Virus record (IMG/VR): IMGVR_UViG_3300030333_003079
Location: 1 to 21,778 of that record
Direction: 5' to 3' (one strand)
Length of the DNA: 21,778 nucleotides
DNA from: a virus
Shown: positions 3,389-21,100 of the stretch, piece by piece
Layout of the letters: the number at the start of each line of letters is the position of its first letter
Position numbering within the stretch: position 1 is the stretch's first letter
Notes under the pieces: model-generated
What the model saw: only the letters and a program-made list of their open reading frames with translations
Databases searched by the model: none
Told to the model about the DNA's origin: nothing
Made by a program: the position numbers and the translations under genes

Positions 3389-3946
3389 TTGTCTACAATG
3401 AATCGAAACGACCACGACCAAGCAGAAATTCGCCTATTGGGCCTCATTTTGATGCAATCTTTGAGCATCGGATTGGCAGTTGGAATTTTCCACAGTGACA
3501 TGTGGCTAATGCATACTGACCCACTTGTCAATGGAATGACCTATGCCATGGGTGCGTTTGCTGTGCAAGGACTTGCTTACTATGTGTTCAAAATGTTCTT
3601 TCAACAAGGCATGGATGAAAAAGCACGCATCGCGCAAATGGAGCGAGAGCGACGAATGCGCTCGACTGGGCTACAGCAGACGTTTGAGCAGCGCCGTCAA
3701 GATATGGAATTGAAGATGCAAGAACTTCAGTTGGAACAAGAACTACGTTGGTTAGAGGCCAATCCCGGTCAAACACCTCCTTGGCTTGACCAAAGAGCAG
3801 GTAGTGGGGGCATGGACAGTGCTTCCATGTCGTTGGCCACGCCAAGTCATTATGCACAGGAAAAGCCTTCGTTGGAACTCGGTGTATCGTTTGACAAGGA
3901 TGAAAAGCCACGAGCGGCTGATGGTAAGTTCAAGAAAAAGGAGTGA
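3389..3946 (+). CDS. Two-helix membrane protein with a coiled-coil domain
   Basis: A 185-residue protein starting at TTG 3389, chosen because GAGGGAT (3378-3384) lies four bases upstream; ATG 3398 would drop three residues and leave a long spacing. Residues about 16-34 and 48-71 are hydrophobic and form two likely transmembrane helices joined by a short loop. Residues 76-125 are a charged Glu/Arg/Gln heptad-rich segment, almost certainly a coiled coil. The tail (126-185) is Pro/Ser/Lys-rich and disordered. I do not recognise the family. It opens a six-gene run that includes a GTPase with a likely membrane anchor, so it may act as a membrane scaffold or effector for that protein; this is inferred from context. 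The stop is built into the SD of the next gene. Confidence 0.8.
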   Translation: MSTMNRNDHDQAEIRLLGLILMQSLSIGLAVGIFHSDMWLMHTDPLVNGMTYAMGAFAVQGLAYYVFKMFFQQGMDEKARIAQMERERRMRSTGLQQTFEQRRQDMELKMQELQLEQELRWLEANPGQTPPWLDQRAGSGGMDSASMSLATPSHYAQEKPSLELGVSFDKDEKPRAADGKFKKKE

Positions 3947-3952: not shown

Positions 3953-4198
3953 GTGGGGCGTATTTTCAAAACGCCTACAGATGATGCTGTCGAACAAACG
4001 CTTCGGGCAATGCATACTCAAAACATCATCGACAACACTTACGAAAAGGGGTTAGGGTGGCTGAAAGTTTTGATTTTCAGTACATCAACTGCTTTTGTGG
4101 TGTCTGCATTTGAGTACTATACAGATTGGAACCTTTGGGAAAGCACTGGGAATTGGTTGTCTGAATGGGCTCAAAAGCAATTGGAGAAGTTGATTTGA
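3953..4198 (+). CDS. Small single-pass membrane protein
   Basis: An 81-residue protein from GTG 3953, with SD GGAGTGAT a few bases before it. Residues 34-52 are hydrophobic and form one likely membrane helix. The first 30 residues are soluble and mildly amphipathic. Residues 53-81 are Trp-rich and amphipathic (four Trp within about 20 residues), typical of a segment that lies on a membrane surface. No family is recognised. It ends one base before the ATG of the GTPase gene, so the two are almost certainly co-translated. That makes a membrane receptor or anchor for the GTPase a natural hypothesis, without direct evidence. Confidence 0.75.
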   Translation: MGRIFKTPTDDAVEQTLRAMHTQNIIDNTYEKGLGWLKVLIFSTSTAFVVSAFEYYTDWNLWESTGNWLSEWAQKQLEKLI

Positions 4199-4199
4199 G

Positions 4200-4916
4200 A
4201 TGTCAGCCATTGCCGGTTCTGCCTTGGTTGGTGGGATTGTTTGGGCCAGAGAACTTTGGAACTATTGGAAGCCACGTCGTGTAGGAATCTATGGCCCTGC
4301 TTTGGCTGGTAAGACAACATTGGATAGATATTTGACTACGCCCGGTGAAATGGAGGACATTTCGCTTGAGGACCGGACAAAGCATATGCGCATTTTAGGT
4401 CGCTATATTTTGCCTAGGCCGACACGCAAACGTGTCAGTTGGAAAGGAGAAAAGCGTGTTGTATACAGCGCAGACATTGGTGGAGATGAGAGATTTTGGA
4501 GTCTTTGGATAGACGATATGGTCGATAGACAGGTCGAGGCCGTGGTGTTTTTGTTCGACCACCGTGCAATGCAGGGCGGCGATGCAGCAATTCAAGCGGT
4601 TGGTGGCTTCAAGTATCTTGTCGATGCGTTGATACACAAGCAATATCGCTACCGAGGCTTCAAAACGTGGTGGCGTGGTAAAAAATACAGCCCTAAAATC
4701 GTATTATTGGTAGCCAATAAAGCAGACCAGTGGTGGGATGACCAAGCCAATACGTTGTGGCAACAGCAAAGATTGGGTGAACACAAGATGTTTGACCCAT
4801 TTCGGGAAGATTTGATACGTTTGCAGAAGGCAGGAATCCCTACAAATCGGTCTATGATGGCCACAAAAATTGGTTGGAATGTAGAACCAACTATGGTCGA
4901 TTTGCTCTCAGGCTAA
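4200..4916 (+). CDS. Ras-superfamily (Arf/SR-beta-like) small GTPase with N-terminal hydrophobic segment
   Basis: A 238-residue protein with the GTPase motif set in order. The G1/P-loop is GPALAGKT (32-39). The G3 motif DIGGDERF (92-99) is followed by WSLW, echoing the DVGGQ...LW block of Arf and SR-beta proteins. The G4 motif is NKAD (173-176). The G5-like motif ATKIGWNVEP (221-230) matches the Ras-family SAK...NVE pattern. These residues bind guanine nucleotide and magnesium. The position of the catalytic Gln after DxGG is Asp96 here, so intrinsic hydrolysis may be slow or depend on a partner. Residues 2-16 are hydrophobic and followed by aromatic and basic residues, like a membrane anchor or amphipathic helix. 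It lies between small membrane-protein genes with almost no spacing. The GTPase call is strong; the Arf/SR-beta affinity is suggestive; the biological role is unknown. Confidence 0.88.
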   Translation: MSAIAGSALVGGIVWARELWNYWKPRRVGIYGPALAGKTTLDRYLTTPGEMEDISLEDRTKHMRILGRYILPRPTRKRVSWKGEKRVVYSADIGGDERFWSLWIDDMVDRQVEAVVFLFDHRAMQGGDAAIQAVGGFKYLVDALIHKQYRYRGFKTWWRGKKYSPKIVLLVANKADQWWDDQANTLWQQQRLGEHKMFDPFREDLIRLQKAGIPTNRSMMATKIGWNVEPTMVDLLSG

Positions 4917-4930: not shown

Positions 4931-4975
4931 TTGATTATAGTGCACATCGCAGCAAAAGAGAGGGAGTCATTATGA
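4931..4975 (+). CDS. Possible 14-residue leader peptide before the Cys/His protein
   Basis: In the 55-base gap after the GTPase gene, TTG 4931 is preceded by GGAGG (4919-4923) at seven bases' spacing. It opens a 14-codon frame (product LIIVHIAAKERESL, first codon read as Leu) whose TGA overlaps the ATG at 4972 as ATGA. The strong SD would otherwise have no gene to serve, because the ATG at 4972 has its own (GAGGGAG). It is too short to judge by composition and may be chance. Confidence 0.25.
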   Translation: MIIVHIAAKERESL

Positions 4976-6015
4976 TACCAAATATGATGAATTTTGGTGG
5001 TTATGGTCAGATTCCACAGCAAGGTGCTTCCTTGTCGATGGTAGACCAAAATCAGTTGATTGCATTGTCACAACAGGGCAATGCGAGCCTAACACATGAA
5101 CAATTACTGGAAATGCAGAGTGCTCAGCAAGGGATGAGAGAGGTTGCAGAGAAGAAAAACTTGGTTGTACCCAAGGTCAATTTCTATCCGAGTCGCCATC
5201 CTGACCCCCGAAAAGCAAGAAGAGCCGATATTAAGCAAGCCCGGCGTCTTTTGAAGCCGCTGAAGCGTAGTTGGTGGAATCCATTACGATGGGTTTGGGG
5301 ACAAAAATACCGCTTTAATCGAAATGCCAGTCAATGTGTAGTCGATGGTTGTGATGTAGAGGAGTTAATCAAGTACGATAACCTCTATGCGAAGATTTGT
5401 GACGAAGAAACAGGTCGTTCTTTGTGGGATATGTACTGGAAAAACCCTGTAACTGGGGAGCCAGAGGCCTTTGTTGCACGTGAAAACGTCACTGATGGGC
5501 GTAAAATGAGGGGTACATATTGCCCAGAACACCTGCATTTGTACCATTTATTGTGCAAATGGGAGACTCAGGAGGAAACAGAGCGCAAAAAGACCAAAAC
5601 TGGCATGAAAGAACTGGTCAAAAAGGGCGTAAGTACGGTCGCAGTACCCATTTCTCTCATCAAAAAGAAGGACAATACACCCCCATTTTTGACCAAATAC
5701 GAGGATTTTTTCGTTCAATTGGAGGCAGATGCGCGTACACACCCCGGAATTAGCATTCTTCACTATCAAAATCCTGAAACAAAGTTGAATGATGTCACAA
5801 TGGTGGTCTTTGATTTGCGTCTTTTCCAGAAAGAATTGGCTGAAATTGATACAACTTTGATGGATGCACTAGGAACTGTGGGCATTACGGCCCCTCCCGC
5901 AAATGCTATGCCTGTTCAGCCTATCGCAGATACCATCACGCAGCCTATGGGCAATGAAATGGGCCTTCCACAGCAGATACAGCAGACAGATTTAGGGATT
6001 CATACAAATCAGTAG
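4972..6015 (+). CDS. Basic Cys/His (probable zinc-binding) protein with disordered ends
   Basis: A 347-residue protein from ATG 4972, with SD GAGGGAG shortly before it. Residues 1-60 are Gln/Met-rich and disordered. Residues 72-117 are very basic with a Trp-rich stretch (WWNPLRWVWG, 101-110) that could touch a membrane surface or nucleic acid. The core holds C122, C127, C143, C184, H187, H189, H192 and C195, enough for one or two zinc sites. Residues 207-235 are Lys-rich, and 236-300 look like a compact alpha/beta domain. The tail is Pro/Gln/Met-rich. No family is recognised. It is part of the membrane/GTPase operon; the tail composition resembles the N-terminus of the next protein, suggesting a shared assembly. 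An HK97-type capsid role was considered but nothing supports it. Confidence 0.78.
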   Translation: MIPNMMNFGGYGQIPQQGASLSMVDQNQLIALSQQGNASLTHEQLLEMQSAQQGMREVAEKKNLVVPKVNFYPSRHPDPRKARRADIKQARRLLKPLKRSWWNPLRWVWGQKYRFNRNASQCVVDGCDVEELIKYDNLYAKICDEETGRSLWDMYWKNPVTGEPEAFVARENVTDGRKMRGTYCPEHLHLYHLLCKWETQEETERKKTKTGMKELVKKGVSTVAVPISLIKKKDNTPPFLTKYEDFFVQLEADARTHPGISILHYQNPETKLNDVTMVVFDLRLFQKELAEIDTTLMDALGTVGITAPPANAMPVQPIADTITQPMGNEMGLPQQIQQTDLGIHTNQ

Positions 6016-6023
6016 GTGAAATA

Positions 6024-6662
6024 ATGGGACTTTTTGGAAATAGTAATGCGCAAGTACCGAATGGTGCACTGAATCTCAGTGCTTCAGGGGCACCAATGGC
6101 AGGAAATCAACAGCAAGTATTCGGGGCTGGCCCGAATATGTTCAATCAACAGAATGCATTTGGTGCGCAAGGTGGAATGGGAGCGGCTTTTGCACAAGGG
6201 CTAGGCGTCCCGAACCAACCTGTAGCCCCTCCATCTGAGACAGAGATTCTAATTCACCTACTAAACTCAAATGTGCCTGTAGAAAAGTGGCTTGCAGGTC
6301 AGAACTTCCAGAATGTTGTGAACATGTTGTCTAGTATGGTGACACTCTGCATTCATCACTATTTCAAAAACGCCAAGTTTGTTGCTGATGATGATGGGAA
6401 CTTGCAGATTGATGTGGCCTCTTTGCCTTCAGATGTCCAAACTGTCTCGGCAGAGAATGTATTGATGGATTTACAACAAGTCCAAAGTGCAGCGCAGCAG
6501 TCTGTTCAGCAGTGCCAGATGACACAGCAGCAAATTGTAGCCATTGCGAACCAATCGTTGATGAGTAGTGCACTTGGCGCTGCGATGAATGAGGGTATTT
6601 TCACGAAAGGCATGAGTGCAATGGGCTCAGGTATTCGTGGATTCGTAACAGGAGGAAGATAA
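6024..6662 (+). CDS. Gln-rich protein with disordered N-terminus and helical core
   Basis: A 212-residue protein from ATG 6024. AGGTGA (6014-6019) overlaps the upstream TAG stop and serves as SD. Residues 1-70 are Gly/Gln/Asn/Ala-rich and disordered. Residues 72-120 form a compact helical region (ETEILIHLLN..., then two more helices). Residues 120-190 are Gln/Ser-rich and helical, likely an oligomerising coiled coil. The C-terminal 25 residues are Gly/Met-rich and moderately hydrophobic. No family is recognised. It lies two bases upstream of the two-helix membrane protein gene, with that gene's SD inside its last codons, so the two are probably made together. A virion structural role is plausible from composition only. 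Confidence 0.78.
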   Translation: MGLFGNSNAQVPNGALNLSASGAPMAGNQQQVFGAGPNMFNQQNAFGAQGGMGAAFAQGLGVPNQPVAPPSETEILIHLLNSNVPVEKWLAGQNFQNVVNMLSSMVTLCIHHYFKNAKFVADDDGNLQIDVASLPSDVQTVSAENVLMDLQQVQSAAQQSVQQCQMTQQQIVAIANQSLMSSALGAAMNEGIFTKGMSAMGSGIRGFVTGGR

Positions 6663-6663
6663 G

Positions 6664-6912
6664 ATGAGAGGAAATACAGGGTTCATCCCCAATGACATTG
6701 CACAGATAGCCGTTGAGTGGTTTAATCCACGTAAGTCAGTAATTGTTGACATGGTGATGATACAGTTGCTTTCGATGACTCTGACATTATTGTCAGTACT
6801 GATTTTCAAAGGCGACCAAATCGACTCATCTAACATGGCTTGGATGGTCGCAGGGTTGTTTGGTTCCTTCTTGTTGGCGTCGGCTGTTTATTCCCGAATC
6901 ACGTCGATATGA
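6664..6912 (+). CDS. Small two-helix membrane protein
   Basis: An 82-residue protein from ATG 6664, with SD GGAGGAAG in the last codons of the previous gene. Residues about 27-48 and 59-77 are hydrophobic helices joined by a short polar loop, a hairpin topology with an N-terminal soluble stretch of 25 residues. No Cys, and no known motif. It has the size and shape of small phage membrane proteins, including holins, but there is no endolysin nearby and archaeal hosts mostly lack peptidoglycan, so I do not call it a holin. It ends the membrane/GTPase operon; its 3' end overlaps the convergent minus-strand gene by 25 bases. Confidence 0.75.
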   Translation: MRGNTGFIPNDIAQIAVEWFNPRKSVIVDMVMIQLLSMTLTLLSVLIFKGDQIDSSNMAWMVAGLFGSFLLASAVYSRITSI

Positions 6913-7169
6913 GGACCCCACTTTTTGAGGGGACAAGTCGATGAGGAAAGAGTGGTCTTTACGCGCATCTGGCACCCACATTCTGTGCAGCGATTGCTCG
7001 CTTCAATCCAGTGTGGGCAGGCCCTGCAAATGCTATTCCGCTCTTCCCTAACTTCAGTTGGTACAAATCTGCGCATACCGATGTCTCTGGCCGCTTTTGC
7101 AAGGTCAATTCCTGTCTGAGGACGTATGGGAACGCCTCGGATTCTGGGGGCTCTAGGTAACTTTCGCAT
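6888..7169 (-). CDS. Small multi-Cys zinc-binding protein of phage type
   Basis: A 93-residue protein on the minus strand from the ATG at 7169; the frame stays open to another ATG at 7232, which would add 21 residues and overlap the start of the plus-strand gene. The C-terminal half has C48-x2-C51-P, C61-x2-C64-G-C66 and C79-P, followed by KKW. From memory, this order of CxxCP, CxxCGC and CP..KW occurs in a widespread family of small phage proteins of unknown function. The N-terminal half is basic (RKLPRAPRIRG) and Pro-rich. It is the only minus-strand gene between 1779 and the end of the window, sitting exactly between the membrane/GTPase operon and the packaging genes. Neither start has a clear SD; a leaderless transcript is possible. 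Confidence 0.68.
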   Translation of the reverse strand: MRKLPRAPRIRGVPIRPQTGIDLAKAARDIGMRRFVPTEVREERNSICRACPHWIEASNRCTECGCQMRVKTTLSSSTCPLKKWGPHIDVIRE

Positions 7170-7230
7170 CACTACGTGATGAATGCCGTTCCACCATAAG
7201 GTTAATCCTTCGACCAATAGTGCCGAATGC

Positions 7231-7932
7231 ATGGTCGGGGGTCGTCAGACTAAACGGTCTTGCTCATTTTGCCAAGATGAGAACCGTGACGAACTGGAAA
7301 GACAAATCACCGCAGGTGAAGTTACGGCCCGAGAATTAGACCGTGAAAAAGGCTGGAGAGACAACACCACTCAGCGCCATATCAGCAATCATATGGGAGA
7401 GTACATCAAGGCTGCAAACCCCTCTTGCCCAGTGTGTTCATGTGATGAGCGAAGTGAACTAGAAATGCAATACTTTGAGGACGGAAGGTCCTGTGAAGAT
7501 ATTTCAAATGAGTTGGGTTGCTCAGAAGATGCAGTGTATCGCCACATGAAAGACCACTTCCAACCCATTGTCAAGAAATCAGCAACGGCTTTGGTTGCAG
7601 TCAAGGTGGGGCATGAGATTGATTTGCTCCGTGAAAACGTGCAGGGTCTGAATGGGAAGTTAACTCAATTGATGGATGAGGTCAGCATTCACGATGATGG
7701 TGCCGTTAGCGATTTAGTGCGTTTGCACAAGGAAGTTCGTGAAACTCTCAAAGACCTCGTGGCTTATCAGTCAAAGTGGGCTGAGCCTGAAGAGAAAATG
7801 GTGGCCAACACAATCAATATCCTCAAAGTGGAGATGGCAAAGGAATCTCCAGAGACATGGAAGCGAGTTAAGAGTGCGCTTCTCAACCAAGAAGATGGTG
7901 AGTTTGACCTTACAGAGGTCATAGGTGATTGA
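7231..7932 (+). CDS. Tandem zinc-finger/HTH protein, candidate small terminase subunit
   Basis: A 233-residue protein from ATG 7231; an in-frame ATG at 7183 would add 16 residues but lacks an SD and would run into the divergent gene. It holds two copies of a module. Copy one has C11-x2-C14 and H50-x3-H54; copy two has C66-x2-C69 and H105-x3-H109. All four ligands repeat at exactly 55 residues, and R19/R74, E21-L-E/E76-L-E, Q25/Q80 and R49/R104 are also shared. The segment between Cys and His pairs reads as a helix-turn-helix (GRSCEDISNELGCSEDAVYR in copy two). Residues 125-233 are helical with coiled-coil character, suitable for oligomerisation. DNA recognition by a small terminase fits the family features and the position upstream of terL, although three other genes lie in between. 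A virus regulator is the alternative. Confidence 0.72.
   Translation: MVGGRQTKRSCSFCQDENRDELERQITAGEVTARELDREKGWRDNTTQRHISNHMGEYIKAANPSCPVCSCDERSELEMQYFEDGRSCEDISNELGCSEDAVYRHMKDHFQPIVKKSATALVAVKVGHEIDLLRENVQGLNGKLTQLMDEVSIHDDGAVSDLVRLHKEVRETLKDLVAYQSKWAEPEEKMVANTINILKVEMAKESPETWKRVKSALLNQEDGEFDLTEVIGD
7923..7929 (+). promoter_or_regulatory. SD that decides the start of the 7934 gene
   Basis: AGGTGAT lies four bases before ATG 7934, directly against the TGA stop at 7930-7932. This favours ATG 7934 over the in-frame GTG at 7925, which lies inside the SD itself. Confidence 0.55.
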
Positions 7933-7933
7933 T

Positions 7934-9115
7934 ATGCCAAGTGGAATGGGAGGTATGGCAACGGGTAGTGATACCCGAATGTACAACCCCCGCTCGGAAT
8001 CTTCACGAATGTACTCTGCTGACGAAAGTCGCGGTGATTACAGGCACGGTTATGGTGACCCAGAAGACATGGAGCGCCAGCGTGACAAACAACAAGCGCA
8101 GGAAGAAGCGGACAAAACCAAAGACCTGCCACATATCAAAGTCGAAGTTGAGCATCAGGGCCCGGATTTACAAAACCCCCTTTCCCCCTTGCCGGGCGCT
8201 GAGAACGAAGAGCCCTTGATGAATGAGGACGAGAATGCAGTGGGCGCAGAAGTCTCTCAATTAACAGGGATGCCCGGCTCTATGGGTGCTCAACTTGACC
8301 AAGCAGTCGGGGCCAGAACGGGCACTGGTTCCGCAATGGGTGGCTATCGCCCTCTGTTGGCTACAGGTGAGCCGATGGATGGTGCTTGGTCCACACTACT
8401 CAAAAGAGTCAAGCCTTGGAGCGCACCTCAGTTTGACCAGACTCCGGTTGTTCGGCATCCAGAGCGTGCATCTTTGACGATGAGCCAAATCAAACCACGT
8501 AACCTTTCAACATACGGAGGCAAAGGTGGGCTTGACGAAGCCAAGAGTCCGTTGAAGCGAACTCACCAAGGTAGAGGTCAGGCTCACGCGGCTCACGAAT
8601 TCGTTGCGCCTTACCACCAGTACCTGAGTACACAAGCCCATCGCCGCCAAATGGGTGGAATTGGTCTACCCGGTCATGGTGCAAAAGAAGTTGGTCGTGG
8701 GAGTCCGAAGATTACAATCCACCGATTGGCAGGTGAAAGCAAAGGACCGGGCACCATACCCAAAAAGCCCAAAGAAATGTCTGTAAGTCCAGTTCCTAAG
8801 GTCCCAATGGCCATCAAGGCTGAACTAGAGCACATCCAAGATTTACTACTCAAGGCCAAGAGCCCAGCCGATTACCTCCACTTCTCACAGTTGCGCTCAA
8901 TGCTGCGACGTGTGAAGGAACTGATGGAGCGAAAGGAGAGTCGTCTGAAGGCCACAGCCAATATGCAGGGTGGACCCGGTGAGACTGGGCATCGTGATGG
9001 TGGTACAACGACCAACCACGGTGGCACTGAGACATTGAATCCAGAAGATGACACCAAGAACTGGGGCGCTTCATCAGCCCATCTGGTCGCACGTGGTAGC
9101 GGGAGGAGTGCCTGA
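7934..9115 (+). CDS. Largely disordered protein sharing a TGEPMD motif with the minus-strand gene
   Basis: A 393-residue protein. Residues 1-130 are Gly/Met/Ser/Glu-rich and disordered with a charged stretch at 42-66. Residues 144-158 (TGEPMDGAWSTLLKR) match residues 124-137 of the minus-strand protein at 1-1778. Residues 160-290 are Pro/His/Lys-rich with little secondary structure. Residues 291-340 form two charged helices (a likely coiled coil), and the last 50 residues are Gly/Thr/His-rich. No family is recognised. It lies between the candidate small terminase and a large His/Pro-rich protein, with stop-start overlap (TGATG) at the 3' junction. A scaffold or virion-internal linker role would fit a disordered, late-gene product, but that is inference. 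Confidence 0.75.
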   Translation: MPSGMGGMATGSDTRMYNPRSESSRMYSADESRGDYRHGYGDPEDMERQRDKQQAQEEADKTKDLPHIKVEVEHQGPDLQNPLSPLPGAENEEPLMNEDENAVGAEVSQLTGMPGSMGAQLDQAVGARTGTGSAMGGYRPLLATGEPMDGAWSTLLKRVKPWSAPQFDQTPVVRHPERASLTMSQIKPRNLSTYGGKGGLDEAKSPLKRTHQGRGQAHAAHEFVAPYHQYLSTQAHRRQMGGIGLPGHGAKEVGRGSPKITIHRLAGESKGPGTIPKKPKEMSVSPVPKVPMAIKAELEHIQDLLLKAKSPADYLHFSQLRSMLRRVKELMERKESRLKATANMQGGPGETGHRDGGTTTNHGGTETLNPEDDTKNWGASSAHLVARGSGRSA

Positions 9116-11277
9116 TGCCGGTCCTTGTTCGTAAGTCATGGCCACAAAGCGCATCCGTTCTGTCTATTCTGATGAGTGGTGGATTGATTCGGAAGTCTGA
9201 GGGACTTTGGCACGAAGGCGAAGGAATGCACCATGGCTTTGGGCCTGAAGAATTGTTTGATGGGATAGATGACCACCCATACGATGACACAGACGCACCC
9301 GGCCTAAAGCCTCACCATACTCCTTATGGTTACAACCCAAAGACTGGTGAACTCCAATTCAATGAAGATGGTACACCGGCTGGTTACCACGCCATTGATG
9401 CTGTTGCAAATCATTTACGAGAGCAGATAGAAGAAGCAGGCCTTGATACAGAGGCTATTAGTCCACGGGCTCTCATACAGTTGGCCATTGACATGCACAA
9501 TTTAGAACATCAGATGCCTGATGGTTCACCCGGTCCACATACACTTCCCGGCTTTGATAGTGTATTGTGGCGCCGAATTTTTGGTGGCCCGTATCAAAAG
9601 GGGCTATCTGCTAAAGAAATGCAAAGTCGAGGTCATGACCCTGATGACACAGGTATTGCTCCAAAGCCATTGCAAACCATGAATCTAAACATGGGCAATG
9701 TAAACCGTCGTGGTGCTGCAACTGGGCGATGGTTTGATAGTGGTTATGTGCCATTTTATCAGGCTCTCAGGGCGGTTGTGAATGATACAAACGAGAGATT
9801 AGGCAGAAGGGGTATGCCACAGATTGATACCAGCAGTATGGAGTATTTGACAAAGCCTCATGTCAATCCTAGTAAAATGAGCAACAATAAAGTTCGTCAC
9901 CTTAGGGGTGGAGAAGGCCGACATCTATTGGACACAGGTCGAACTTATGGTGAAGCCCTTGACGACCCGAATGCAAACGTCAGTTCTTGGTCTATCGCAG
10001 CATCAACACTCACAGACAGAGGCGGATTTCCTGAAGCATTTATTTCAGCACCTAGAAATCCTGATGGGACTGTCAAAACCACAGGTCGCCGTGGTCGAAA
10101 AGGAAAAGTTGACGAAGAAACAGGCGAACAGACTGGGGGTATGAGGGGACACGCAGTCACTGCGTTTAGGGATGCGGGCCTTGAGTTGACACCGGATGAA
10201 TTAGACCACTTTCTTGCCATGCCATTGGCAAAGGTTCTGTTTGGGCAACCCCGCGAAGGAGTTCCCAAAAAAATTCTAGATAACTTGGCAGCAGAGCACG
10301 GTATAGACATGCAATCGCCTGAATTTATCAGGCATCTTTCAAGTATGTCTCCTCAAAAACTACCCAAAGAATTGCACCAAAGCAGAGGTTCTCACCACTA
10401 TGCGCACAAACTTGCAGCGTTGAGTCGATTAGTTGGCGATAAATTTGACCAAAGTAACTACATGCCTAGTGACTCATCAGGCATTTTACATGAATCAAAC
10501 ATCGAAGACCATGAGTTGGCAGCCAAGATTTTGTCACACATGGTAGGGCACTATGAGATAGAGCCCCACGACTTTGGTGCTGAGTTGCAACCCAGCGCAG
10601 GTCACCCAATGGATGGCTCACACCATGCCTTCCCTGAACATTATCAGGATTACGTAGCATTAGACAGTAGTCAAATGCACCCCAATACTCATTTGCATGG
10701 GGATAGTTACAGTCGGGAAGAACTACCAGAACAAGAACCTCAAGCCCAACCTCTCCAGATGCGGCCAGCCCCTATGGCAGAAGCGCCAGTACCCCCTCGT
10801 AATCCGACACCACAAGAATTGGGTCGCTTGGCCACAATGGGTCAATTGAGGCCGGGCTCTGAGTTTGTAGGTCGTAGGACACCAGATACTGGGCAAATGA
10901 TTACACCTGCTACCGCACAGAGAGCACAAGCACTGTCACAGCCGGGACAAACAATGTTTGACCCATACAGTGGTGCTTGGCTTCGTAGCCGCGACGATGT
11001 GTTAGGTGCAATGGACACCGTCCTCAAGGCCATGGAAGATTTGCAATTGGAAACAGCAATGCAGGATGCGACAGTGATGAAGCATGTTCCTACCCGATTG
11101 GATACAGGTTCTACAACTGAGGTTGGTATGTTTGCCAAATCTCTAGGCTTGACAGGTCACGATGTGCGAGCGATTCATTCTGCACAGGGCGACTGGTCAA
11201 AAGTTGCCAAGCAGTGGAGCGTCAATGAAAAGACGGTTCGGGTTATCAAGGCTGCAATGAGGGGGTCACTTTCATGA
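9115..11277 (+). CDS. Large His/Pro-rich protein with C-terminal HTH-like end
   Basis: A 720-residue protein from ATG 9115, which shares one base with the upstream TGA; SD GGGAGGAG lies about ten bases before it. I do not recognise the family. The body is soluble, rich in His, Pro, Gly and Asp, with no membrane segment. Residues 90-150 have regular helical patterns around an IQLAIDMHNLEH segment. A basic linker (TTGRRGRKGKV) occurs near residue 325. The region around 530-640 is Pro/Gln-rich and likely disordered. The last 45 residues (GLTGHDVRAIHSAQGDW then KVAKQWSVNEKTVRVIKAAM) resemble a helix-turn-helix, suggesting DNA contact or a docking domain. Composition resembles the proteins at 1-1778 and 18162-end. 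It overlaps the next gene by four bases (ATGA), so it belongs to the late operon. Confidence 0.78.
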   Translation: MPVLVRKSWPQSASVLSILMSGGLIRKSEGLWHEGEGMHHGFGPEELFDGIDDHPYDDTDAPGLKPHHTPYGYNPKTGELQFNEDGTPAGYHAIDAVANHLREQIEEAGLDTEAISPRALIQLAIDMHNLEHQMPDGSPGPHTLPGFDSVLWRRIFGGPYQKGLSAKEMQSRGHDPDDTGIAPKPLQTMNLNMGNVNRRGAATGRWFDSGYVPFYQALRAVVNDTNERLGRRGMPQIDTSSMEYLTKPHVNPSKMSNNKVRHLRGGEGRHLLDTGRTYGEALDDPNANVSSWSIAASTLTDRGGFPEAFISAPRNPDGTVKTTGRRGRKGKVDEETGEQTGGMRGHAVTAFRDAGLELTPDELDHFLAMPLAKVLFGQPREGVPKKILDNLAAEHGIDMQSPEFIRHLSSMSPQKLPKELHQSRGSHHYAHKLAALSRLVGDKFDQSNYMPSDSSGILHESNIEDHELAAKILSHMVGHYEIEPHDFGAELQPSAGHPMDGSHHAFPEHYQDYVALDSSQMHPNTHLHGDSYSREELPEQEPQAQPLQMRPAPMAEAPVPPRNPTPQELGRLATMGQLRPGSEFVGRRTPDTGQMITPATAQRAQALSQPGQTMFDPYSGAWLRSRDDVLGAMDTVLKAMEDLQLETAMQDATVMKHVPTRLDTGSTTEVGMFAKSLGLTGHDVRAIHSAQGDWSKVAKQWSVNEKTVRVIKAAMRGSLS

Positions 11278-12366: not shown

Positions 12367-13869
12367 ATGGCCGAGGAGAACATCAATCAACTCATCGTCG
12401 ATATGGACCGTGAGATGAGTAAGAAGTCATTCAAGTACTTCTTCGTCGATATGCTTGGCTTTGATTTCTCAACCCATCACGAAGCATGGGAGAAAGGGCT
12501 ACATGAAAACCGATACTACTGCGTGAAAGCGTCACGTGACCACGGTAAGTCTGTGTTCTTCATGAGTTATGCACTGTGGATTGCAGCGTTTAATCCCGGC
12601 ACCAGCATCATGGTCTTCAGTCACAGCCTTGAGCAAACGCTTGAGCACATGCGATTCATCCGTATGCAAATTGAAGAGACTCCTGTTCTACAACACCTCA
12701 AGCCTGAGGGCGGTCGTCCGTGGAACAAGTCCTACTTCGACTTCACCAATGGCAGTCGTTTGATGGCCAAGTCGGTTGGCGGTGCTACTCGTGGATTCCA
12801 CCCTGACGTTGTGGTCTGTGACGACATTTTGTGGGGGACTTCAGCCTCAGAGTTGCAGCGTGCAGCCGATTGGTTCTATGCGGTTCTCCTTCCTGTTCTT
12901 CACCACTCATCACGCTTGATGATGGTCGGTACGCCATTCAGTTACAACGATTTGTATGCTGAGTTGGAGACCAAAGATACGTTCCAAGTTGAGACTTATC
13001 CTGCAATTCTTGCCAATGGTGAACCATTGTGGCCCAATCGTTGGCCACTTGATGCTCTCAAAACACGTGAGGCGTCTATGCCCGCGATTCAGTTTGCACG
13101 TGAGTACCTTTGCGAGCCTATCCACGACCTATCGAGTATGTTCCCCAATGACATTCTGGAACAGGCACGGGATGACACGCTTATTCTGCTGGACAAGGCA
13201 GAGATGGAGTACGACGAGGATGGAGAGACTGCTGGAATCTTTGGGCAGCATTTCGTTGGTTGGGACCCTGCAATCGCATCGGACAAAAAGGCCGACTATA
13301 CCGCCATGCTGACGTTGCGTATCCTACCTGATAGCGAGGAGAAGCAGATTGTCAATGCTTTGAATCAAAAGAATCTCAACAGCACTGCACAAAAGCGACA
13401 GATTATCCTCCTCAACAACCGATTCAAGCCTGAGATTATCGAACTTGAAGGCAACAACTTTCAGCGAATGTTCCAAACCGAGTTGGAAGACATGCGGGAC
13501 GACATTCCCGTGCGTACAGTTATGACGACTAAGCAGCGTAAGGAGAGCATGTTTATGTCACTCTTGATGGCATTTGAGCAAGGCAAGATACGCACACCTT
13601 GGGGTAATGAAGCCAGCAGAGAGTTTACGCGAACACTGGAGACCCAACTCAATCGCTTTGGCATGACCAAGCAGGGTAAGTTGGAGTCGGTCGGTGTGCA
13701 CGATGACTTGGCCATGGCACTTGCTTTGGCGAATTGGGCTACAAAGGAATTCCGTGGCAACATTGTCATGCTTGATGACGATGATATGCCGGGCTTTGAT
13801 GACTGGTTTAAGGGAGGAGAAGCACCATCTAAAGGTGGCACAAGACCAAGTGAGTGGTTTATTGCGTGA
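12367..13869 (+). CDS. terL: Terminase large subunit (packaging ATPase-nuclease)
   Basis: A 500-residue protein of normal length for TerL. The ATPase domain has Walker A ASRDHGKS (55-62), Walker B VVVCDD (148-153) with the acidic pair, and a coupling motif LMMVGTP (184-190). The RNase H-like nuclease domain shows GWDPA with D300, a second acidic residue D310, E361 in an ELEGN segment, and D446/D447 in HDDLA. These are the expected metal-binding acids in the expected order. TerL cuts concatemeric viral DNA and drives it through the portal into the prohead. The ATG lies three bases after GGGTGAT. The next gene starts 38 bases after the stop, and the portal gene follows one gene later, as usual in tailed viruses. 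No intein or frameshift is seen. This is the most secure call in the window. Confidence 0.97.
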   Translation: MAEENINQLIVDMDREMSKKSFKYFFVDMLGFDFSTHHEAWEKGLHENRYYCVKASRDHGKSVFFMSYALWIAAFNPGTSIMVFSHSLEQTLEHMRFIRMQIEETPVLQHLKPEGGRPWNKSYFDFTNGSRLMAKSVGGATRGFHPDVVVCDDILWGTSASELQRAADWFYAVLLPVLHHSSRLMMVGTPFSYNDLYAELETKDTFQVETYPAILANGEPLWPNRWPLDALKTREASMPAIQFAREYLCEPIHDLSSMFPNDILEQARDDTLILLDKAEMEYDEDGETAGIFGQHFVGWDPAIASDKKADYTAMLTLRILPDSEEKQIVNALNQKNLNSTAQKRQIILLNNRFKPEIIELEGNNFQRMFQTELEDMRDDIPVRTVMTTKQRKESMFMSLLMAFEQGKIRTPWGNEASREFTRTLETQLNRFGMTKQGKLESVGVHDDLAMALALANWATKEFRGNIVMLDDDDMPGFDDWFKGGEAPSKGGTRPSEWFIA

Positions 13870-13906: not shown

Positions 13907-15199
13907 ATGTGGGATTCGTTGGTCGTCAATTATGGCGAAACACTTCCTGAAATTTTGTCCAATCACCCACAGATAGATGTCGATATGGCTTCTAGTATAA
14001 TCAAGTCTACATTGGATGAGCCTATTCAGAAGACTGCGCCTTCAATTACGCTTCAGTTCCCACCTACAGGTGAGGGTTGGATTAAGGCTTACACAGGCAT
14101 GAATGCAACGCAGTTGGTCAAGCAACTGAAGAAGCAGCGCCGACACAACAAAGATGTCAAAGATGACATTGACCATTTGGTCAAACTCATTCGTACAATC
14201 AAGAGTGAAGAGGTCGAGGCTACGCTCAATGGTATAGGCTGGGCTACAGACCGGCACGATACACTTCGCTCGCTTGGTTTGTCTGACCGTGACCTCAAAT
14301 CACTACGGTTGTTCCACAATTCACGTAGTTCTTCACTTCTGCGAGCATGTGAAATGTGGGAGACTTCTGATATGGCACTCAAGGCACTTGATGAGTATCA
14401 GGATGTTTGGGGTGAAGCCGAGCAAAAGGCGTGGGTAAACGCAATGGAGACTCGCAAAGCCGCACGCTCTGTTTGGAGAAAGTCTCTACATCAGATTGAC
14501 AGCCTTACCAAGGACCAAAAGTCTTGGTTGGAGTTGGCAAAGGCAGAACTGGATGACAAAGGCCCCATGACTTCTCGCTCAATTACTGAAAACATGATGG
14601 GTTCAGCACCCTCAGGTGTAATCCGTAGTCTGACTCCGGCAAAGATGAGTAAGTTACTCAAAATGTATGGCGAGGAAATGGACATTATCAAAGGTACACG
14701 AAAGGGAGAATATGTTCTGCTAAAGTCCGATGGCCTTGTACTGAAGAACTCTGACGTATGGGGCTATGCGGCTGGGTTCCTTGATGCTGATGGTTCAATT
14801 TACATCACCGACCGTGATGAGCCACGTGCCTCTTTCATTGCCACGGGCAACAGAGGACGTGTGCATTGCGAGCAATTACACAAGGTATTGGACTGTGGCA
14901 TTCTTCAGTTGGACCAAAAGGTGTACAAAGACGGCCAGCGTTCACAACACCGGGTATCATTTTATTCTAAGGAGGATTTGAGAAAACTCCTCACAGGTTT
15001 GGGTCCACACCTTCGGATGAAAGAAACACAGGCAAAGGCTGTGTTGGCTTTCATTGACGAAAAGGATTCGACGAGAAAAGGACAATTGCGTAAATTGGTA
15101 CAGTATCTCAACTGGGAGGGAACACAGAAAGGTGAGGACTGCCTCCGCCAGTGGGGAGTAGACCAAGATACGGTCATGAGTTGGGCAGGTGGTCTATGA
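13907..15199 (+). CDS. wHTH-LAGLIDADG fusion protein between terL and portal
   Basis: A 430-residue protein from ATG 13907 with a strong SD (GAGGAGG). Residues 1-200 are mostly helical and unrecognised. Residues about 205-275 look like a winged helix-turn-helix (helices around 222-253, then a beta-wing ending at YVLLKSDG). Residues 284-385 match a single LAGLIDADG domain: the motif is GYAAGFLDADGSIYI (286-300) with the catalytic-type acidic residue D295, followed by basic beta strands and the typical PHLRMKETQAKAVLAFI (367-383) ending. It has one motif, so it would act as a dimer or be non-catalytic. It is not inside a recognisable intein or intron: it is an ordinary gene with its own SD, and its stop overlaps the portal start. 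Either a homing endonuclease captured into a virion gene, or a packaging-associated nuclease in the place of HNH proteins elsewhere. Confidence 0.82.
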   Translation: MWDSLVVNYGETLPEILSNHPQIDVDMASSIIKSTLDEPIQKTAPSITLQFPPTGEGWIKAYTGMNATQLVKQLKKQRRHNKDVKDDIDHLVKLIRTIKSEEVEATLNGIGWATDRHDTLRSLGLSDRDLKSLRLFHNSRSSSLLRACEMWETSDMALKALDEYQDVWGEAEQKAWVNAMETRKAARSVWRKSLHQIDSLTKDQKSWLELAKAELDDKGPMTSRSITENMMGSAPSGVIRSLTPAKMSKLLKMYGEEMDIIKGTRKGEYVLLKSDGLVLKNSDVWGYAAGFLDADGSIYITDRDEPRASFIATGNRGRVHCEQLHKVLDCGILQLDQKVYKDGQRSQHRVSFYSKEDLRKLLTGLGPHLRMKETQAKAVLAFIDEKDSTRKGQLRKLVQYLNWEGTQKGEDCLRQWGVDQDTVMSWAGGL

Positions 15200-16944
15200 T
15201 GGCAGAAGGAGAACAGGGCAGAGTTAGTCGATTTTTGAGTGCCATTGCATCTCCGTTCCGTCGCCGGTCTACACCGGCTCCTCAGATGCCTTTGTGGACA
15301 ACGGGTATTCAAGAGCCTGTACTTGTTCAAGGTGTTACACTACCAGCCCTATATGCAGTGGCCAATGAGAACTTGATTCTACGAACCGTAATCACAACTC
15401 TACAGCAGGAAATTTTCCGCCGTGGCTATTACTGGGAAAAGGCATACCACAAGAAATGCGTTGAGTGTGAAAAGGAATACCAGCATGACATTGAATCATG
15501 TGACTTGTGTGGAGGAGAAGTCAAAGACCCTGACCCTGACCAAGCCATCTATGCTCGTTGGTTTGTAGACCAACGGAACAGCATGAACCAGTCATTCATG
15601 GATGTGCTTCGTGAAATCGAGTATGATTTGAACATCACCGATGATGCATTTTTGATTCTGATTAAGGAGTATTACATTGACGAAGAGAGTGGTGAGCCTG
15701 CTTTCTATCGTGTAAAGGAAGCGATTCGTGGTGACCCTATCTTCATGCGCATTGTTGCTGACAAGCGTGGTGTACGAGGTGGTCGCTATCGTGTCTGTCC
15801 GCTTCACCGTGATGTCGTTCGCTCTTTCCATGAGGAAGAGAAAAACTGCCCTACATGCAGTCAAAAATTAGAGGATGTACATTACGTCAATACTGCAGGT
15901 TCAGGCAAAACACAGTATTTCCTTGATGGAGAAGTCTTGCATATTTCCAAGTACCAACCTTCCAAGTTGTATGGGCGTGCGCCTGTGGCCACGCTATGGC
16001 GACAAGCCATGACATTAACAGCAATGGACAATTACATGTACACAGCCTACAGTAAGAGGCGAACCCCACGTGGTATGATTTCAATTACCACAGACAACAT
16101 TGAATCCATGAAATCTTTCTGGAAGGGCGTTGATGAGAAGTTGGAGCGTGACCCTCATTACATTCCTAAGATTGGAATCGAAAGTCAGACAGGGCGCGGT
16201 GGTGTGAATTGGGTCAAGTTCATGGACACTCTGGAAGAAATGCAGTACATTACTGTCCGTGATGAAATGCGACAGCGCATTGCTTCGTTCTACGGCGTGT
16301 CCAATGTGTTCATGATGGATACAGGTAAATCTGGCGGCCTCAACAACGAAGGATTGCAAGTTCTTGTTACCAATCGTGCAGTTGAGTTTGGTCACAAAGT
16401 GTATACTGAGAACTTATTCCCACGTATGTTAGAGCAAATGGAAGTTACAGATTGGAAGTTGACACTGTATCCATCGGAAGAAGAGGACGAGGTCACTCGA
16501 CTTCGTCGAGATGAGATGGAAGTCAACATTGCACAGCGCATGGCTATGCTTGGTTATCAGGCTCAATTGCTGGAAGAAGGTACACGAGACATTCGCTTCA
16601 TTTACAAGCAGCCTGACCCCGGTATGCAGCAAGGTCCACCCGGCATGGGTGGCGGTATGGGTATGGGTATGCCAATGGGCGGAATGCAGATGGGTGGCGG
16701 TATGGGCACACCCGGTGCACTTCCGAGCCGAAATATCCCACCACAACTCGCAGGCGCCATGGGCGCTGCAGCCCGAGGACCGGGTTCACAACCCGGTGGG
16801 GAAGGCATGGGAATCCGCACACCGAGCAGCCCTGCGGCTCCTCAACGGCGTAGTGGAATGAGTGGAAGTCCAGTATCATCAGTACAGCAACGAGGTATGC
16901 AACCGGGCCCCGTTGAACAGGCATCTCGATTCAGAGGTGCTTGA
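15196..16944 (+). CDS. Portal protein with two Cys clusters
   Basis: A 582-residue protein. The start is ATG 15196 or the adjoining ATG 15199, with AGGTGG just upstream and overlap with the previous stop; a frame open from 15151 has no signal. Residues 50-475 have the portal layout: an N-terminal clip/wing region, a DITDDAFLIL-like strand set around 145-160, HISKYQPSKLYGRAPV (249-264) followed by long helices, and FYGVSNVFM in the core, patterns I associate with phage and archaeal-virus portals. Inserted are two probable zinc sites: C88/C91/C102/C105 and C201/C218/C221 with H204. The tail from about residue 474 is Met/Gly/Pro-rich and disordered. The portal forms the dodecameric DNA channel at one capsid vertex and docks TerL. 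Position after terL supports the call. Confidence 0.9.
   Translation: MMAEGEQGRVSRFLSAIASPFRRRSTPAPQMPLWTTGIQEPVLVQGVTLPALYAVANENLILRTVITTLQQEIFRRGYYWEKAYHKKCVECEKEYQHDIESCDLCGGEVKDPDPDQAIYARWFVDQRNSMNQSFMDVLREIEYDLNITDDAFLILIKEYYIDEESGEPAFYRVKEAIRGDPIFMRIVADKRGVRGGRYRVCPLHRDVVRSFHEEEKNCPTCSQKLEDVHYVNTAGSGKTQYFLDGEVLHISKYQPSKLYGRAPVATLWRQAMTLTAMDNYMYTAYSKRRTPRGMISITTDNIESMKSFWKGVDEKLERDPHYIPKIGIESQTGRGGVNWVKFMDTLEEMQYITVRDEMRQRIASFYGVSNVFMMDTGKSGGLNNEGLQVLVTNRAVEFGHKVYTENLFPRMLEQMEVTDWKLTLYPSEEEDEVTRLRRDEMEVNIAQRMAMLGYQAQLLEEGTRDIRFIYKQPDPGMQQGPPGMGGGMGMGMPMGGMQMGGGMGTPGALPSRNIPPQLAGAMGAAARGPGSQPGGEGMGIRTPSSPAAPQRRSGMSGSPVSSVQQRGMQPGPVEQASRFRGA
16635..16715 (+). repeat. Low-complexity GGTATGGGTATG-type tract in the portal tail
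   Basis: Short imperfect repeats of GGTGGCGGTATGGG and GGTATG encode the Met/Gly tail of the portal. It is internal to the gene and in frame. The antisense reading gives an artefactual His/Thr-rich open frame. Confidence 0.75.
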
Positions 16945-17714: not shown

Positions 17715-18146
17715 ATGAAGCCAAGATTTGTACCCCGCGACAAAGGTTTTGAGAACCTGTTGAAAGAAGCCATTGAATTAGAAGAGCGCCTTGAGAAGGC
17801 TGTCCCTGAGTTCCAGCAAAAAGAGGGCTCAAAGCATGGCCAGACTCAGTTTATGACGCAATCTGCCGGTAAGAACAACGTGCAGAACCATGGGTACATG
17901 ACCAACAATGTCGTTCCCGAATCTGAAGATGTCAAGAACACAGGTGCCAAGATGGAAAACTCCAAGATTTTGGACACCTACAAAAACCACTATCCCAATA
18001 CGGAATCTACCACCGCAAGCCACGAGACAACTGGTGGCAAAGATGAGAAGCCTGCATCTCTCAAGAAGATGGGTACATCTGGCGAGCAGTGGAGACTGGA
18101 TACTATCGCCAAGTCTGTCCGCGACCTGTCCCGCCGTTTGGAGTGA
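17715..18146 (+). CDS. Small charged protein with disordered middle
   Basis: A 143-residue protein from ATG 17715. Residues 8-38 form an amphipathic charged helix (Glu/Lys-rich). Residues 39-115 are Asn/Thr/Gly/Lys-rich and disordered. The last 25 residues (WRLDTIAKSVRDLSRRLE) form an amphipathic C-terminal helix, a layout seen in scaffold-like and virion linker proteins. No known motif. It is the last of three small genes between portal and the giant gene at 18162 and probably belongs to the same head-assembly unit; the specific role is unknown. Confidence 0.72.
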   Translation: MKPRFVPRDKGFENLLKEAIELEERLEKAVPEFQQKEGSKHGQTQFMTQSAGKNNVQNHGYMTNNVVPESEDVKNTGAKMENSKILDTYKNHYPNTESTTASHETTGGKDEKPASLKKMGTSGEQWRLDTIAKSVRDLSRRLE

Positions 18147-18161
18147 ACGGCTGGTGATGGC

Positions 18162-21100
18162 GTGAAAGAAGGCCCTGCTGAGATTTACAAGCGGTCTCGC
18201 AAGGTTTTCTTCCGCTCGTTAATGGATGGCATCGGCAAGTCCGGTGCGGCTGTTGACTATCATTTCGCTTTACTCAATCTCCAGCGACACGACGGTGTCG
18301 TTCCCATGAACCACATCGACCAAATGCTACAGAAGATGGTCGAGCCGGTTCTGAAGCAAGAAGAGTTTGCAGATTTCTGGGGGCAGCAAGAAGCAGCCAT
18401 GCGTCAAGCACAGATACAGGCTTACTTTGCAGAAGTTGAGCGTCAAGAACGTGAGGCAAGAGATTACAGCCAGAGGCAGGGGGCGGGAGGTGCTGCTCCG
18501 TGGACTCAAATTAGACACTTTGAGGGCTCAGGAGGCGTGCCGGGTCAGCAAGTCTCTGGTCGAGATGAGCCGCCGATGGTGGCTAGGGACTTTACTGAAG
18601 GTGGCGTTTCTGATGAAGGTGCAGGTGCAGAAGAATCTTTGCGAGGTTTAGATGCACCCGGTGCAGCACGAGAATGGAGTGAAGGTGCATTCACTTTCCC
18701 AAGATGGCATCAGCAGAAAGTACCAGTATATCGTGATGGTAAGATAGTTGGTTACAATGTAGTCGGTCAGGAAGACCTAGAATCACGATTGTATGGGGGT
18801 GGCATCTATGGAGTACAAGCGCGTGAAGGAGAGTGGGTCGGAGGAGGACACTTAGAACAGCGCGTTGTCGCAGAAGCCGCAGATAATCCAAGAATGCAAG
18901 GCAGGACTTGGCCTCGTATTTTGAATACCGCGACTGCCTTTGACGATGGGAGACCATCACAAGGGTTTGAAGATACAAATTCTTGGTTGATGGGCCATGG
19001 TTCACCACTTCATGGTGATTATGATTATGATAATCCAATTCCGGGCACTTTGCCGCCATGGGTGGAACTACTCAGAGATTTCTATTTGCATCCAGTCGCG
19101 CATGGTCTGACACAGAGTCAAATAGACCATGAGAAAGACCGTCGCTGGGAGCAATTTCACAGAGAACATCCAGATTATAACGAACTTGGTGCAAGAGTAA
19201 AGATTGGGCACCCGATTGTAGATGCATGGGACGGTGCCAGTAATTATCTTGGCAAGTCAAACATGACACCACACGATATGTATGAACGACATTACGACGA
19301 GTGGTTGGCTGATAATGACATTTTGAACTCCTTCCATTCAGATGATGCCGATGGAGAACGAAAATTACGTGAGACTCACATGAATCAGGCTATTGAAAAC
19401 TGGCTAAAAATTGGCCAGATGGATGAGGAAGGGCATCCCATTGGAATGGGCTTGGGAGATTACTTCTATGGTTTAGAATGGTTGTCACCCAAAGAACGCT
19501 CTGCTGTGTATGACCACAGGAGAGTGCATGGGACGGATGACCATAACCACCAGAGAGTCAAAGATGCACGAGGATTTGAAATGGGCAGACTCAAGCGCAA
19601 TAAATGGAACAGGTTCCAACCGCTGTATGAGCACTTTGGTAGAGAGCCAGACATGCCGGGAATCTTTGGGGAGCATAATCTCATTCCTGTTAAGCAAGAC
19701 AAGGCTAAGCCTCAACATATCCGAGAAGCCTTGAAAGAAGGCTCACTTGACCAAGAAATCATTCGGCACCATTATGCTCAGACAGGAGAAGAAGACGGTG
19801 ATGTTGGTCGTGGTATTCCGAAAATGGGTAAGGTCATCGAGGATAGATTTGCGGGAGAAGATGGCGTAGTAAGCCTCAAGCAGTTATTGAGACTTGCAGG
19901 TATTGACCACAACACCTTAGGTAGGGGCAAAGACCGATACAGTAACCTTGAATTTTACAAAAAGGGTGAACACCCAGATTATCCAAATTGGGACCCGGAT
20001 ACAGCACCTATTACAAAAGCAGGTCAGCAGGGTGACATTAGGAAGGATATTCGCCGGATTATGAATCAGGCCAACAGACTGTCTAACGATAATTATCATG
20101 CTCGGAAGATGAATAATGCTGGTGCGTTTCACCTAAATCAGAGAGTCAATCCCAATCAATATGTCAAAGGAAAAGTACCGAATGACCATTTCAATTATGC
20201 AGGTTACAAGCACCCTGAGACAGGAGAATATATCCCTGAAAATTCTACACTATCCACCCATTGGGGTCGCCCATTTCGCTATCATGGTGGCACAGGACGA
20301 CATCACAATATAGCCCTTGACATCATTCACCAACATACAGGGGAACGAGTTGAGGATAAGGAGGGCAACCCAACTGGCGAAATACATTCTCTAATGGGAA
20401 TTAGCAGTGATGTTGCTTCGACTGAAGGGATGAGTGATGAACGCATTGCTGCACTCAAACTGCTCCCGTTCCATGCGAACTTTGACCTCGCTGACAAATC
20501 TATAGGTGCAATGGGGCCTTTTTCTCCGGCGTTTGGCTCTGAAAGAGAACGGGAGAAGAAGAAGAAATATGAGAGGACAGACCCTGATGACCCCATGAGT
20601 AGACGCCTTGTTGGCGAAGAATTGGGTGGGCTGAAATACAAATCTCCTTCTAGGCCTGAAGTTTTCAATCAGTGGAACACAAAAGTCATGTCTCAAGTGA
20701 AAGGAGGTAAATCTGACATTACGAGGTTTGGGACGCATACCTCTATGCCTGCTTCCAACCACATGATTCAGGAACTTTTCCAGCACTACATGGATGAAAA
20801 GCAAAGGGAGGCGGCACTGAATGGGATACGAAAAGGGCGCATTGAAGGAATGGATAGCCATCTCAACATTCGCCTTCCGCATAGAGGGCAGTCTCAATTG
20901 TTTGGCCCGTCACATCATGAGAAAAATGTGGATGATATTTCAAAAAGGCGAGCCGCTCAGATGGGCTGGACAAATCACCCATTGAACCCTGCACCTAGTT
21001 ATGTGGACCACAATGCACTTACGCCTGAGCACACGAAACACATAGGCTCCTTGCAGAGTATGAAGGAAGGAATGGGAACAGGGCAAGCAGAACCAAGTGG

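What the first reader, a model, noticed from the sequence alone, without database searches (positions are those of the whole stretch)
4200..4916. Virus-encoded Arf/SR-beta-like GTPase with an N-terminal membrane-type segment
Seen: GPALAGKT, DIGGDERF...LW, NKAD and a Ras-type G5 (ATKIGWNVEP), in a gene flanked by membrane-protein genes and upstream of packaging genes. Known: Arf and SR-beta proteins use a DVGG(Q)-type switch II and act at membranes. Inference: this is a viral membrane switch. The Gln normally after DxGG is Asp96 here, so turnover may need a partner. I know of no described Ras-superfamily GTPase as a core late gene of a tailed virus.
Basis: partly seen in the sequence, partly recalled or inferred. 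Interest (0 to 1): 0.88.

Follow-up and report, generated by a model that had tools for sequence, protein, structure and literature searches.

The report
Core small GTPase of marine archaeal viruses
A widespread group of tailed viruses that infect ocean archaea carries, in every genome long enough to show it, its own molecular switch of the Ras/Arf kind next to small membrane proteins; such a gene is not known as a standard part of tailed viruses and gives a lead on how they act on the membrane of their hosts.

Summary
ORF 4200-4916 (238 aa) encodes a genuine small GTPase. P-loop, DxGG, NKAD and ATK motifs are intact, and their key residues are invariant in 101 distinct relatives. The predicted fold matches small GTPases, with Arf/Arl proteins ranked first. 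Profile comparison gives 97% probability to Asgard Arf-like and Ras-like sets, against 14% for an AAA ATPase.

The virus is a magrovirus-type tailed virus of marine Poseidoniales archaea. The gene is a strict core gene: starting blind from the capsid gene, 23 of 23 contigs that reach its position carry it. It sits in a fixed late block behind two membrane-protein genes (78/78, 80/80), before a Cys/His-rich protein (80/80), about 8 kb before terL.

Two corrections. The N-terminal helix is only weakly membrane-like. Asp96 is not typical: the position is Gln in 53, Glu in 36 and Asp in 12 of 101, with repeated changes.

Function is inferred: a GTP switch at the host membrane late in infection, most likely in envelope remodelling or exit; virion assembly is the main rival. 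No held paper describes it.

The parts
4200..4916 (+). Small GTPase gene, 238 aa (stop included in the coordinates)
4203..4268 (+). N-terminal helix, residues 2-23, G/A-rich and aromatic, weakly hydrophobic; possible membrane contact
   Evidence: model; composition
4293..4316 (+). G1 / P-loop GPALAGKT, residues 32-39
4377..4379 (+). Thr60, invariant, best candidate for the switch I (G2) threonine
   Evidence: placement by inference
4473..4508 (+). G3 / switch II DIGGDERFWSLW, residues 92-103, with Asp96 at the usual Gln position
4716..4727 (+). G4 NKAD, residues 173-176
4860..4868 (+). G5 ATK, residues 221-223
3389..3946 (+). 185-aa membrane protein: strong hydrophobic segment (16-34), a second weaker one, then a long helical tail; conserved neighbour
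   Evidence: found in 78 of 78 loci within reach
3953..4198 (+). 81-aa protein with one hydrophobic segment of borderline strength; conserved neighbour directly upstream
   Evidence: 80 of 80 loci
4972..6015 (+). 347-aa protein with conserved Cys/His cluster (C122, C127, C184, H187, H189, H192); possible zinc-binding partner
   Evidence: 80 of 80 loci; alignment; no known fold
6024..6662 (+). 212-aa protein, Gly/Gln-rich N-terminal part; conserved neighbour
   Evidence: 80 of 80 loci
6664..6912 (+). 82-aa protein with two transmembrane segments; conserved neighbour
   Evidence: 80 of 80 loci
7183..7932 (+). HTH protein, likely small terminase subunit
   Evidence: terminase role inferred from position
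12367..13869 (+). Terminase large subunit
   Evidence: phrog_38 E=7e-56; 76 of 76 loci
15151..16944 (+). Portal protein
   Evidence: phrog_18178 E=2e-65

Best explanation
The gene encodes a real GTP-binding switch of the small-GTPase (Ras/Arf) superfamily that is a core late gene of magrovirus-type tailed viruses of marine Poseidoniales archaea. Most likely the protein sits at the inner face of the host membrane through its N-terminal helix and the two membrane proteins encoded just upstream. It cycles between GDP and GTP forms, and in the GTP form it recruits or organises viral partners, plausibly the neighbouring Cys/His-rich protein, to drive a late membrane step, most likely envelope remodelling that lets virions leave the cell. 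Shown: motifs, purifying selection, strict conservation and fixed gene neighbourhood; fold by prediction. Inferred: membrane location, GTP cycling, partners and the exit role.
For: Motif residues invariant in 101 sequences; model pTM 0.75 with Ras-type order of strands and helices; 1057 PDB chains at E<=1e-3, top 50 all small GTPases; Arf/Arl ranked 1-5 with Z 13.1-14.2, rmsd 2.7-3.1 over 151-161 residues; hhalign 97% to Arf-like and Ras-like sets, AAA 14%, terminase 0.1%. Core gene: 23/23 in a capsid-first sweep and 4/4 in a polymerase-first sweep. Fixed block with membrane proteins in 78/78, 80/80 and 80/80 loci. dN/dS 0.03-0.07. A euryarchaeal Arf-like GTPase, ArvA, drives vesicle formation and is encoded with a zinc-finger protein proposed as its GAP (PMC10927574).
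Against: The N-terminal helix is mostly below the transmembrane threshold. There are no biochemical data. Fixed proximity to the terminase genes fits assembly equally well. The downstream protein has no detectable similarity to any GAP or known fold. No lysis gene was identified by homology.
Confidence: 0.4

Rival explanations
1. Assembly switch: the GTPase and its neighbours act in virion morphogenesis, for example tethering procapsid assembly or the packaging complex to the membrane, or as an internal virion protein delivered with the DNA.
For: Fixed position about 8 kb upstream of terL on the same strand and close to the probable small terminase gene; Gly/Gln-rich conserved neighbours.
Against: Haloarchaeal viruses with related capsid and portal proteins have no recognisable copy next to terL (the search is narrow, so this is weak). 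Two to three of the neighbours are membrane proteins.
Confidence: 0.3
2. Host-directed mimic: the GTPase interferes with or replaces a host small GTPase, such as an ArvA-like vesiculation switch or an SRP-receptor-like membrane targeting factor, to redirect secretion or block vesicles or superinfection.
For: Arf-type switch II with LW spacing; Arf-like GTPases of euryarchaea act on the membrane (PMC10927574); SR-beta appears in the structure list at Z 12.1.
Against: No close cellular homologue in 84,980 genomes by the motif scan; the only three hits are virus contigs binned into unrelated genomes. Strict conservation in a fixed late block suggests a structural or exit role rather than an optional accessory.
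Confidence: 0.2
3. Not a working GTPase: another P-loop NTPase (for example a kinase), or a GTP-binding protein without hydrolysis.
For: No significant match of the window protein alone to Pfam, PHROGs or PDB; Asp at the catalytic Gln position.
Against: NKAD is a guanine-specific motif (established knowledge) and is invariant; 29 of 34 relatives hit TIGR00231 small_GTP and 14 hit Roc; fold and profile results. A non-hydrolysing form remains possible.
Confidence: 0.05

Closest known systems
Arf/Arl family GTPases (Arl8, Arl1, Arf1; Asgard ArfR)
   Same: Top structural matches; DxGG switch II followed by LW at the same spacing as in the Asgard protein 8oun; helix before the P-loop
   Different: About 15-20% identity; roughly 40-70 residues longer, with a family-specific TPGEM stretch and a long stretch before NKAD; no sign of myristoylation; residue 96 Gln, Glu or Asp
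ArvA, archaeal vesiculating GTPase (Haloferax volcanii HVO_3014)
   Same: Euryarchaeal, Arf-like, N-terminal helix thought to touch the membrane, zinc-finger protein encoded nearby (PMC10927574)
   Different: Cellular, with arvB and arvC; direct sequence comparison could not be made here
SR-beta (SRP receptor beta subunit)
   Same: Small GTPase domain after an N-terminal membrane segment; in the structural list (5ck3, Z 12.1)
   Different: Weak hydrophobicity of the helix here; no SR-alpha partner known; other families score as well or better
MglA / Rup prokaryotic small GTPases
   Same: Prokaryotic members of the same superfamily
   Different: The G3 Asp, not conserved in MglA (PMC4316618), is invariant here; no MglB/Roadblock neighbour found
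Rab/Ran-like GTPases of giant viruses (for example mimivirus Rab, 5xc5)
   Same: Virus-encoded small GTPase; a role in virion membrane biogenesis has been proposed (PMC4569851); in the structural lists
   Different: Eukaryotic hosts and Rab/Ran sequences; here a separate family in tailed viruses of archaea

Membership tests
Ras-superfamily small GTPase | G1 GxxxxGK[S/T] | tested here: met
   GPALAGKT; G32, G37, K38, T39 invariant in 101
Ras-superfamily small GTPase | G3 DxxG | tested here: met
   D92 and G95 invariant
Ras-superfamily small GTPase | G4 NKxD | tested here: met
   NKAD invariant
Ras-superfamily small GTPase | G5 loop of the (S/A)(A/T)K type | tested here: met
   AT[K/R]: A221 in 100/101, T222 in 101/101
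Ras-superfamily small GTPase | G2 switch I threonine | tested here: inconclusive
   Thr60 invariant and suitably placed, but residues 36-55 are modelled with pLDDT under 50
Ras-superfamily small GTPase | Ras-type alpha/beta fold | tested here: met
   Predicted model; 1057 PDB chains E<=1e-3; Z up to 14.2, rmsd 2.8 over 161 residues
Ras-superfamily small GTPase | GTP binding and hydrolysis | not testable with these tools
   needs purified protein
Arf/Arl/Sar family | DxGG switch II with LW ten and eleven residues after the Asp | tested here: met
   D92-x-G-G...L102-W103; LW 101/101, first G 92/101, Gln 53/101; same spacing in 8oun
Arf/Arl/Sar family | closer to Arf than to other small GTPases | tested here: inconclusive
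   Arf/Arl ranks 1-5, but Rag, Rab and SR-beta lie within about 2 Z; hhalign 97.0 Arf-like against 96.9 Ras-like
Arf/Arl/Sar family | N-terminal amphipathic, usually acylated helix and interswitch toggle | tested here: inconclusive
   helix 2-23, hydrophobic moment about 0.48; acylation and toggle not testable
SR-beta | N-terminal transmembrane anchor | tested here: inconclusive
   13 of 101 reach KD 1.6
SR-beta | SR-alpha (SRX) partner | not tested
   no partner search made
MglA | G3 aspartate not conserved; MglB (Roadblock) usually encoded nearby | tested here: not met
   D92 invariant; no Roadblock hit among neighbours; features from PMC4316618
ArvA | sequence family of HVO_3014 with arvB and arvC downstream | not tested
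Magrovirales | 90-110 kb genome, PolB and other replication genes, chaperonin, head and replication modules in opposite directions | tested here: met
   relative G001, 108.6 kb: late genes +, replication genes -, PolB, thermosome, clamp loader; criteria from PMC12999244 and PMC5332604. The window's own record is a 54 kb fragment; its capsid protein is 81% identical to that of G001.

The most novel reading that the evidence does not exclude
The GTPase block is the membrane-remodelling or exit machine of these archaeal tailed viruses: a virus-encoded Arf-like switch with its own membrane partners and regulator, doing the job that holins and endolysins do for phages of walled bacteria.
Probability: 0.25. 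Interest if true: 0.93.

Novelty: new variant of a known kind. Interest (0 to 1): 0.8.

Why it matters
How tailed viruses of archaea leave their hosts is, to my knowledge, unsolved, and no lysis gene of these common ocean viruses was recognised here. A strictly conserved small GTPase locked next to small membrane proteins gives a concrete set of four to six genes to test. It would be the first small GTPase shown to be a core gene of a group of tailed viruses, and it adds a viral branch to the archaeal GTPases that are discussed as forerunners of eukaryotic membrane traffic.

Tried and rejected
Chance host gene pick-up: rejected; 214 viral contig stretches hold a relative and conservation is strict. 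Kinase or other P-loop family: rejected by fold, motifs and profile controls. Cellular origin from the three MAG hits: rejected; the contigs show the viral gene order. A copy in haloarchaeal Druskaviridae or related viruses: none found, but an empty narrow search proves little; the gene before terL in HCTV-1 has no GTPase motif. Known function for the downstream Cys/His protein: structure predicted, no significant match. Foldseek TM-scores are modest (0.4-0.6), as the family has inserts and switch I is poorly modelled. hhalign could not separate Arf-like from Ras-like. An Asgard protein with a weak profile match (E=2.5e-6; sequence) is a distant superfamily member only. Named magrovirus records OR863078, PP497040 and ON649702 were not in the collections. 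PMC11706807 and PMC5434244 were not held, and Zhou et al. 2023 was not consulted, so an earlier annotation as a GTPase in a table cannot be excluded. Whether the GroEL-type magrovirus clades carry the gene, and whether Poseidoniales hosts have a similar GTPase, was not tested.

Full report
Observation. ORF 4200-4916 on the + strand encodes 238 residues and starts one base after the stop of the gene before it. The window protein alone has no significant match in Pfam, PHROGs, NCBIfam or the phage collection, and only a trivial P-loop match in PDB. With its relatives the picture changes. Scanned one by one, 29 of 34 relatives hit TIGR00231 small_GTP (best 5e-4) and 14 hit Pfam Roc (best 8e-4), with weaker Arf, RagA and Ras hits. 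The best GTPase in a profile search of PDB sequences is an Asgard GTP-binding protein, 8oun, whose DLGGQ...NLW aligns without gaps with the viral switch II; at E=0.12 this is only suggestive.

Family. One scan of viral contigs gave 106 relatives and a profile-based scan 214. In 101 distinct sequences every catalytic motif is intact: P-loop G, G, K, T, T; D92 and G95; N173, K174, D176; T222. Stretches peculiar to the family, TPGEM (47-51), R59, T60, H62, W100, LW (102-103) and GW (225-226), are also invariant. The residue after DxGG, Asp96 in the window, is Gln in 53, Glu in 36 and Asp in 12. On a maximum-likelihood tree these states need 11 changes, against about 40 when shuffled, so the position has moved repeatedly between Gln, Glu and Asp, and the window's Asp lies in a mostly Glu branch. 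Purifying selection is strong (dN/dS 0.03-0.07 in the three pairs that are not saturated).

Fold. AlphaFold2 on 34 sequences gave mean pLDDT 72 and pTM 0.75, with the strand and helix order of a Ras-type domain after an N-terminal helix (2-23); residues 36-55, which lead into switch I, are unreliable. Foldseek found 1057 PDB chains at E<=1e-3, the top 50 all small GTPases or complexes with them, at TM-scores of only 0.4-0.6. A second alignment ranked five Arf/Arl chains first (Arl8b, Arl10B, Arl1, Arl10C and Arf1; Z 14.2 to 13.1), followed within about two Z units by Asgard RagA and ArfR, Arl2, Rab5 and SR-beta. The viral library returned Rab, Ran and Ras proteins of giant viruses. Profile-profile comparison gave 97.0% for five Asgard DxGG-type proteins and 96.9% for 24 Asgard Ras-type proteins, against 14% for the virus's own AAA clamp loader and 0.1-1.1% for terminase, portal and helicase. 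It is therefore a small GTPase; an Arf leaning is likely but not proven.

Virus. The window lies in a 54 kb virus record. Relatives reach 109 kb and more. PolB is present in 16 of 19 large records with the GTPase and a chaperonin in 20 of 25; the one examined is of the archaeal group II (thermosome) type. The PolB is nearest to haloviruses; capsid and portal proteins are nearest to haloarchaeal Druskaviridae, about 33% and 28% identical. Late and replication genes run in opposite directions. This fits Magrovirales, viruses of Poseidoniales (PMC12999244), and in particular the thermosome-bearing clade 1 of Nishimura and colleagues (PMC5332604). Equating that clade with Apasviridae is my inference. 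The window record's own capsid protein is 81% identical to that of the 108.6 kb relative.

Core gene. To avoid circularity I started from the major capsid protein, some 20-25 kb away. Of 45 contigs, 23 reach at least 21 kb upstream of the capsid gene and all 23 carry the GTPase; all 22 without it end before its position. A second sweep from PolB gave nine contigs with a capsid gene; the four with enough sequence carry the GTPase (one cut by the contig end) and the five others stop short. Both sweeps sample relatives of this clade, not all magroviruses.

Neighbourhood. In the 80 loci of the first scan the order is fixed: 185-aa membrane protein (78/78 within reach), 81-aa protein with one hydrophobic segment (80/80), GTPase, 347-aa protein with a conserved Cys/His cluster (80/80), 212-aa protein (80/80), 82-aa two-segment membrane protein (80/80), HTH protein that is probably the small terminase subunit (80/80), then terL about 8 kb downstream (76/76). 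The 347-aa protein was modelled (pLDDT 73) and has no significant structural match.

Mechanism. What is shown is a conserved, selected GTPase in a fixed late block with membrane proteins. What is inferred is a membrane-located GTP switch. The best precedent is ArvA of euryarchaea, an Arf-like GTPase that drives vesicle formation and is encoded with a zinc-finger protein proposed as its GAP (PMC10927574). By analogy I propose a late membrane step, most likely exit. An assembly role beside the terminase is nearly as likely. The N-terminal helix is G/A-rich and aromatic with hydrophobicity mostly below the transmembrane cut-off, so peripheral or shallow insertion is more likely than a classical anchor. 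Loss of Gln96 need not mean a dead enzyme: Glu or Asp might still serve, or a partner may supply catalysis; only an assay will tell.

Known or new. No paper found in the held library describes a GTPase in magroviruses; a survey of prokaryotic small GTPases contains neither 'phage' nor 'virus', and a survey of archaeal tailed viruses mentions GTP only as GTP cyclohydrolase. Key magrovirus papers could not be read, so prior annotation is possible. Virus-encoded small GTPases are known in giant viruses, which is why I rate this a new variant of a known kind rather than categorically new.

Noticed in passing
L002:43-3618, 5806-7251 (-), 10057-10425, 17928-18815; L087:280-600; L091:6948-7352, 7575-8650: Seven different proteins of one near-complete relative share a short peptide near the N-terminus of the type (D)xAWxLLK. 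It could be a capsid-targeting or maturation-protease tag.
   Followed up: no
window 4972-6015: 347-aa protein next to the GTPase with conserved Cys/His residues and no detectable known fold, present in 80 of 80 loci; a candidate regulator.
   Followed up: partly
window 6664-6912: 82-aa protein with two transmembrane segments, conserved 80/80; similar to holins in size and topology only.
   Followed up: partly
window 13907-15199: ORF between terL and portal with a C-terminal HNH/LAGLIDADG-like endonuclease part (phrog_5046, E=9e-11).
   Followed up: no
L084, L085, L086: Contigs binned as Maricaulis, Asgard archaeon and Cytophagaceae genomes carry the viral gene order and are misbinned virus sequence.
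   Followed up: yes
L088:4413-20000; L083 from about 3000 to its end: Very long open frame (over 5,100 aa in L088) at the end of the late module, probably a giant tail or fibre protein; in L083 a long stretch lacks listed ORFs, perhaps because one frame runs off the record.
   Followed up: no
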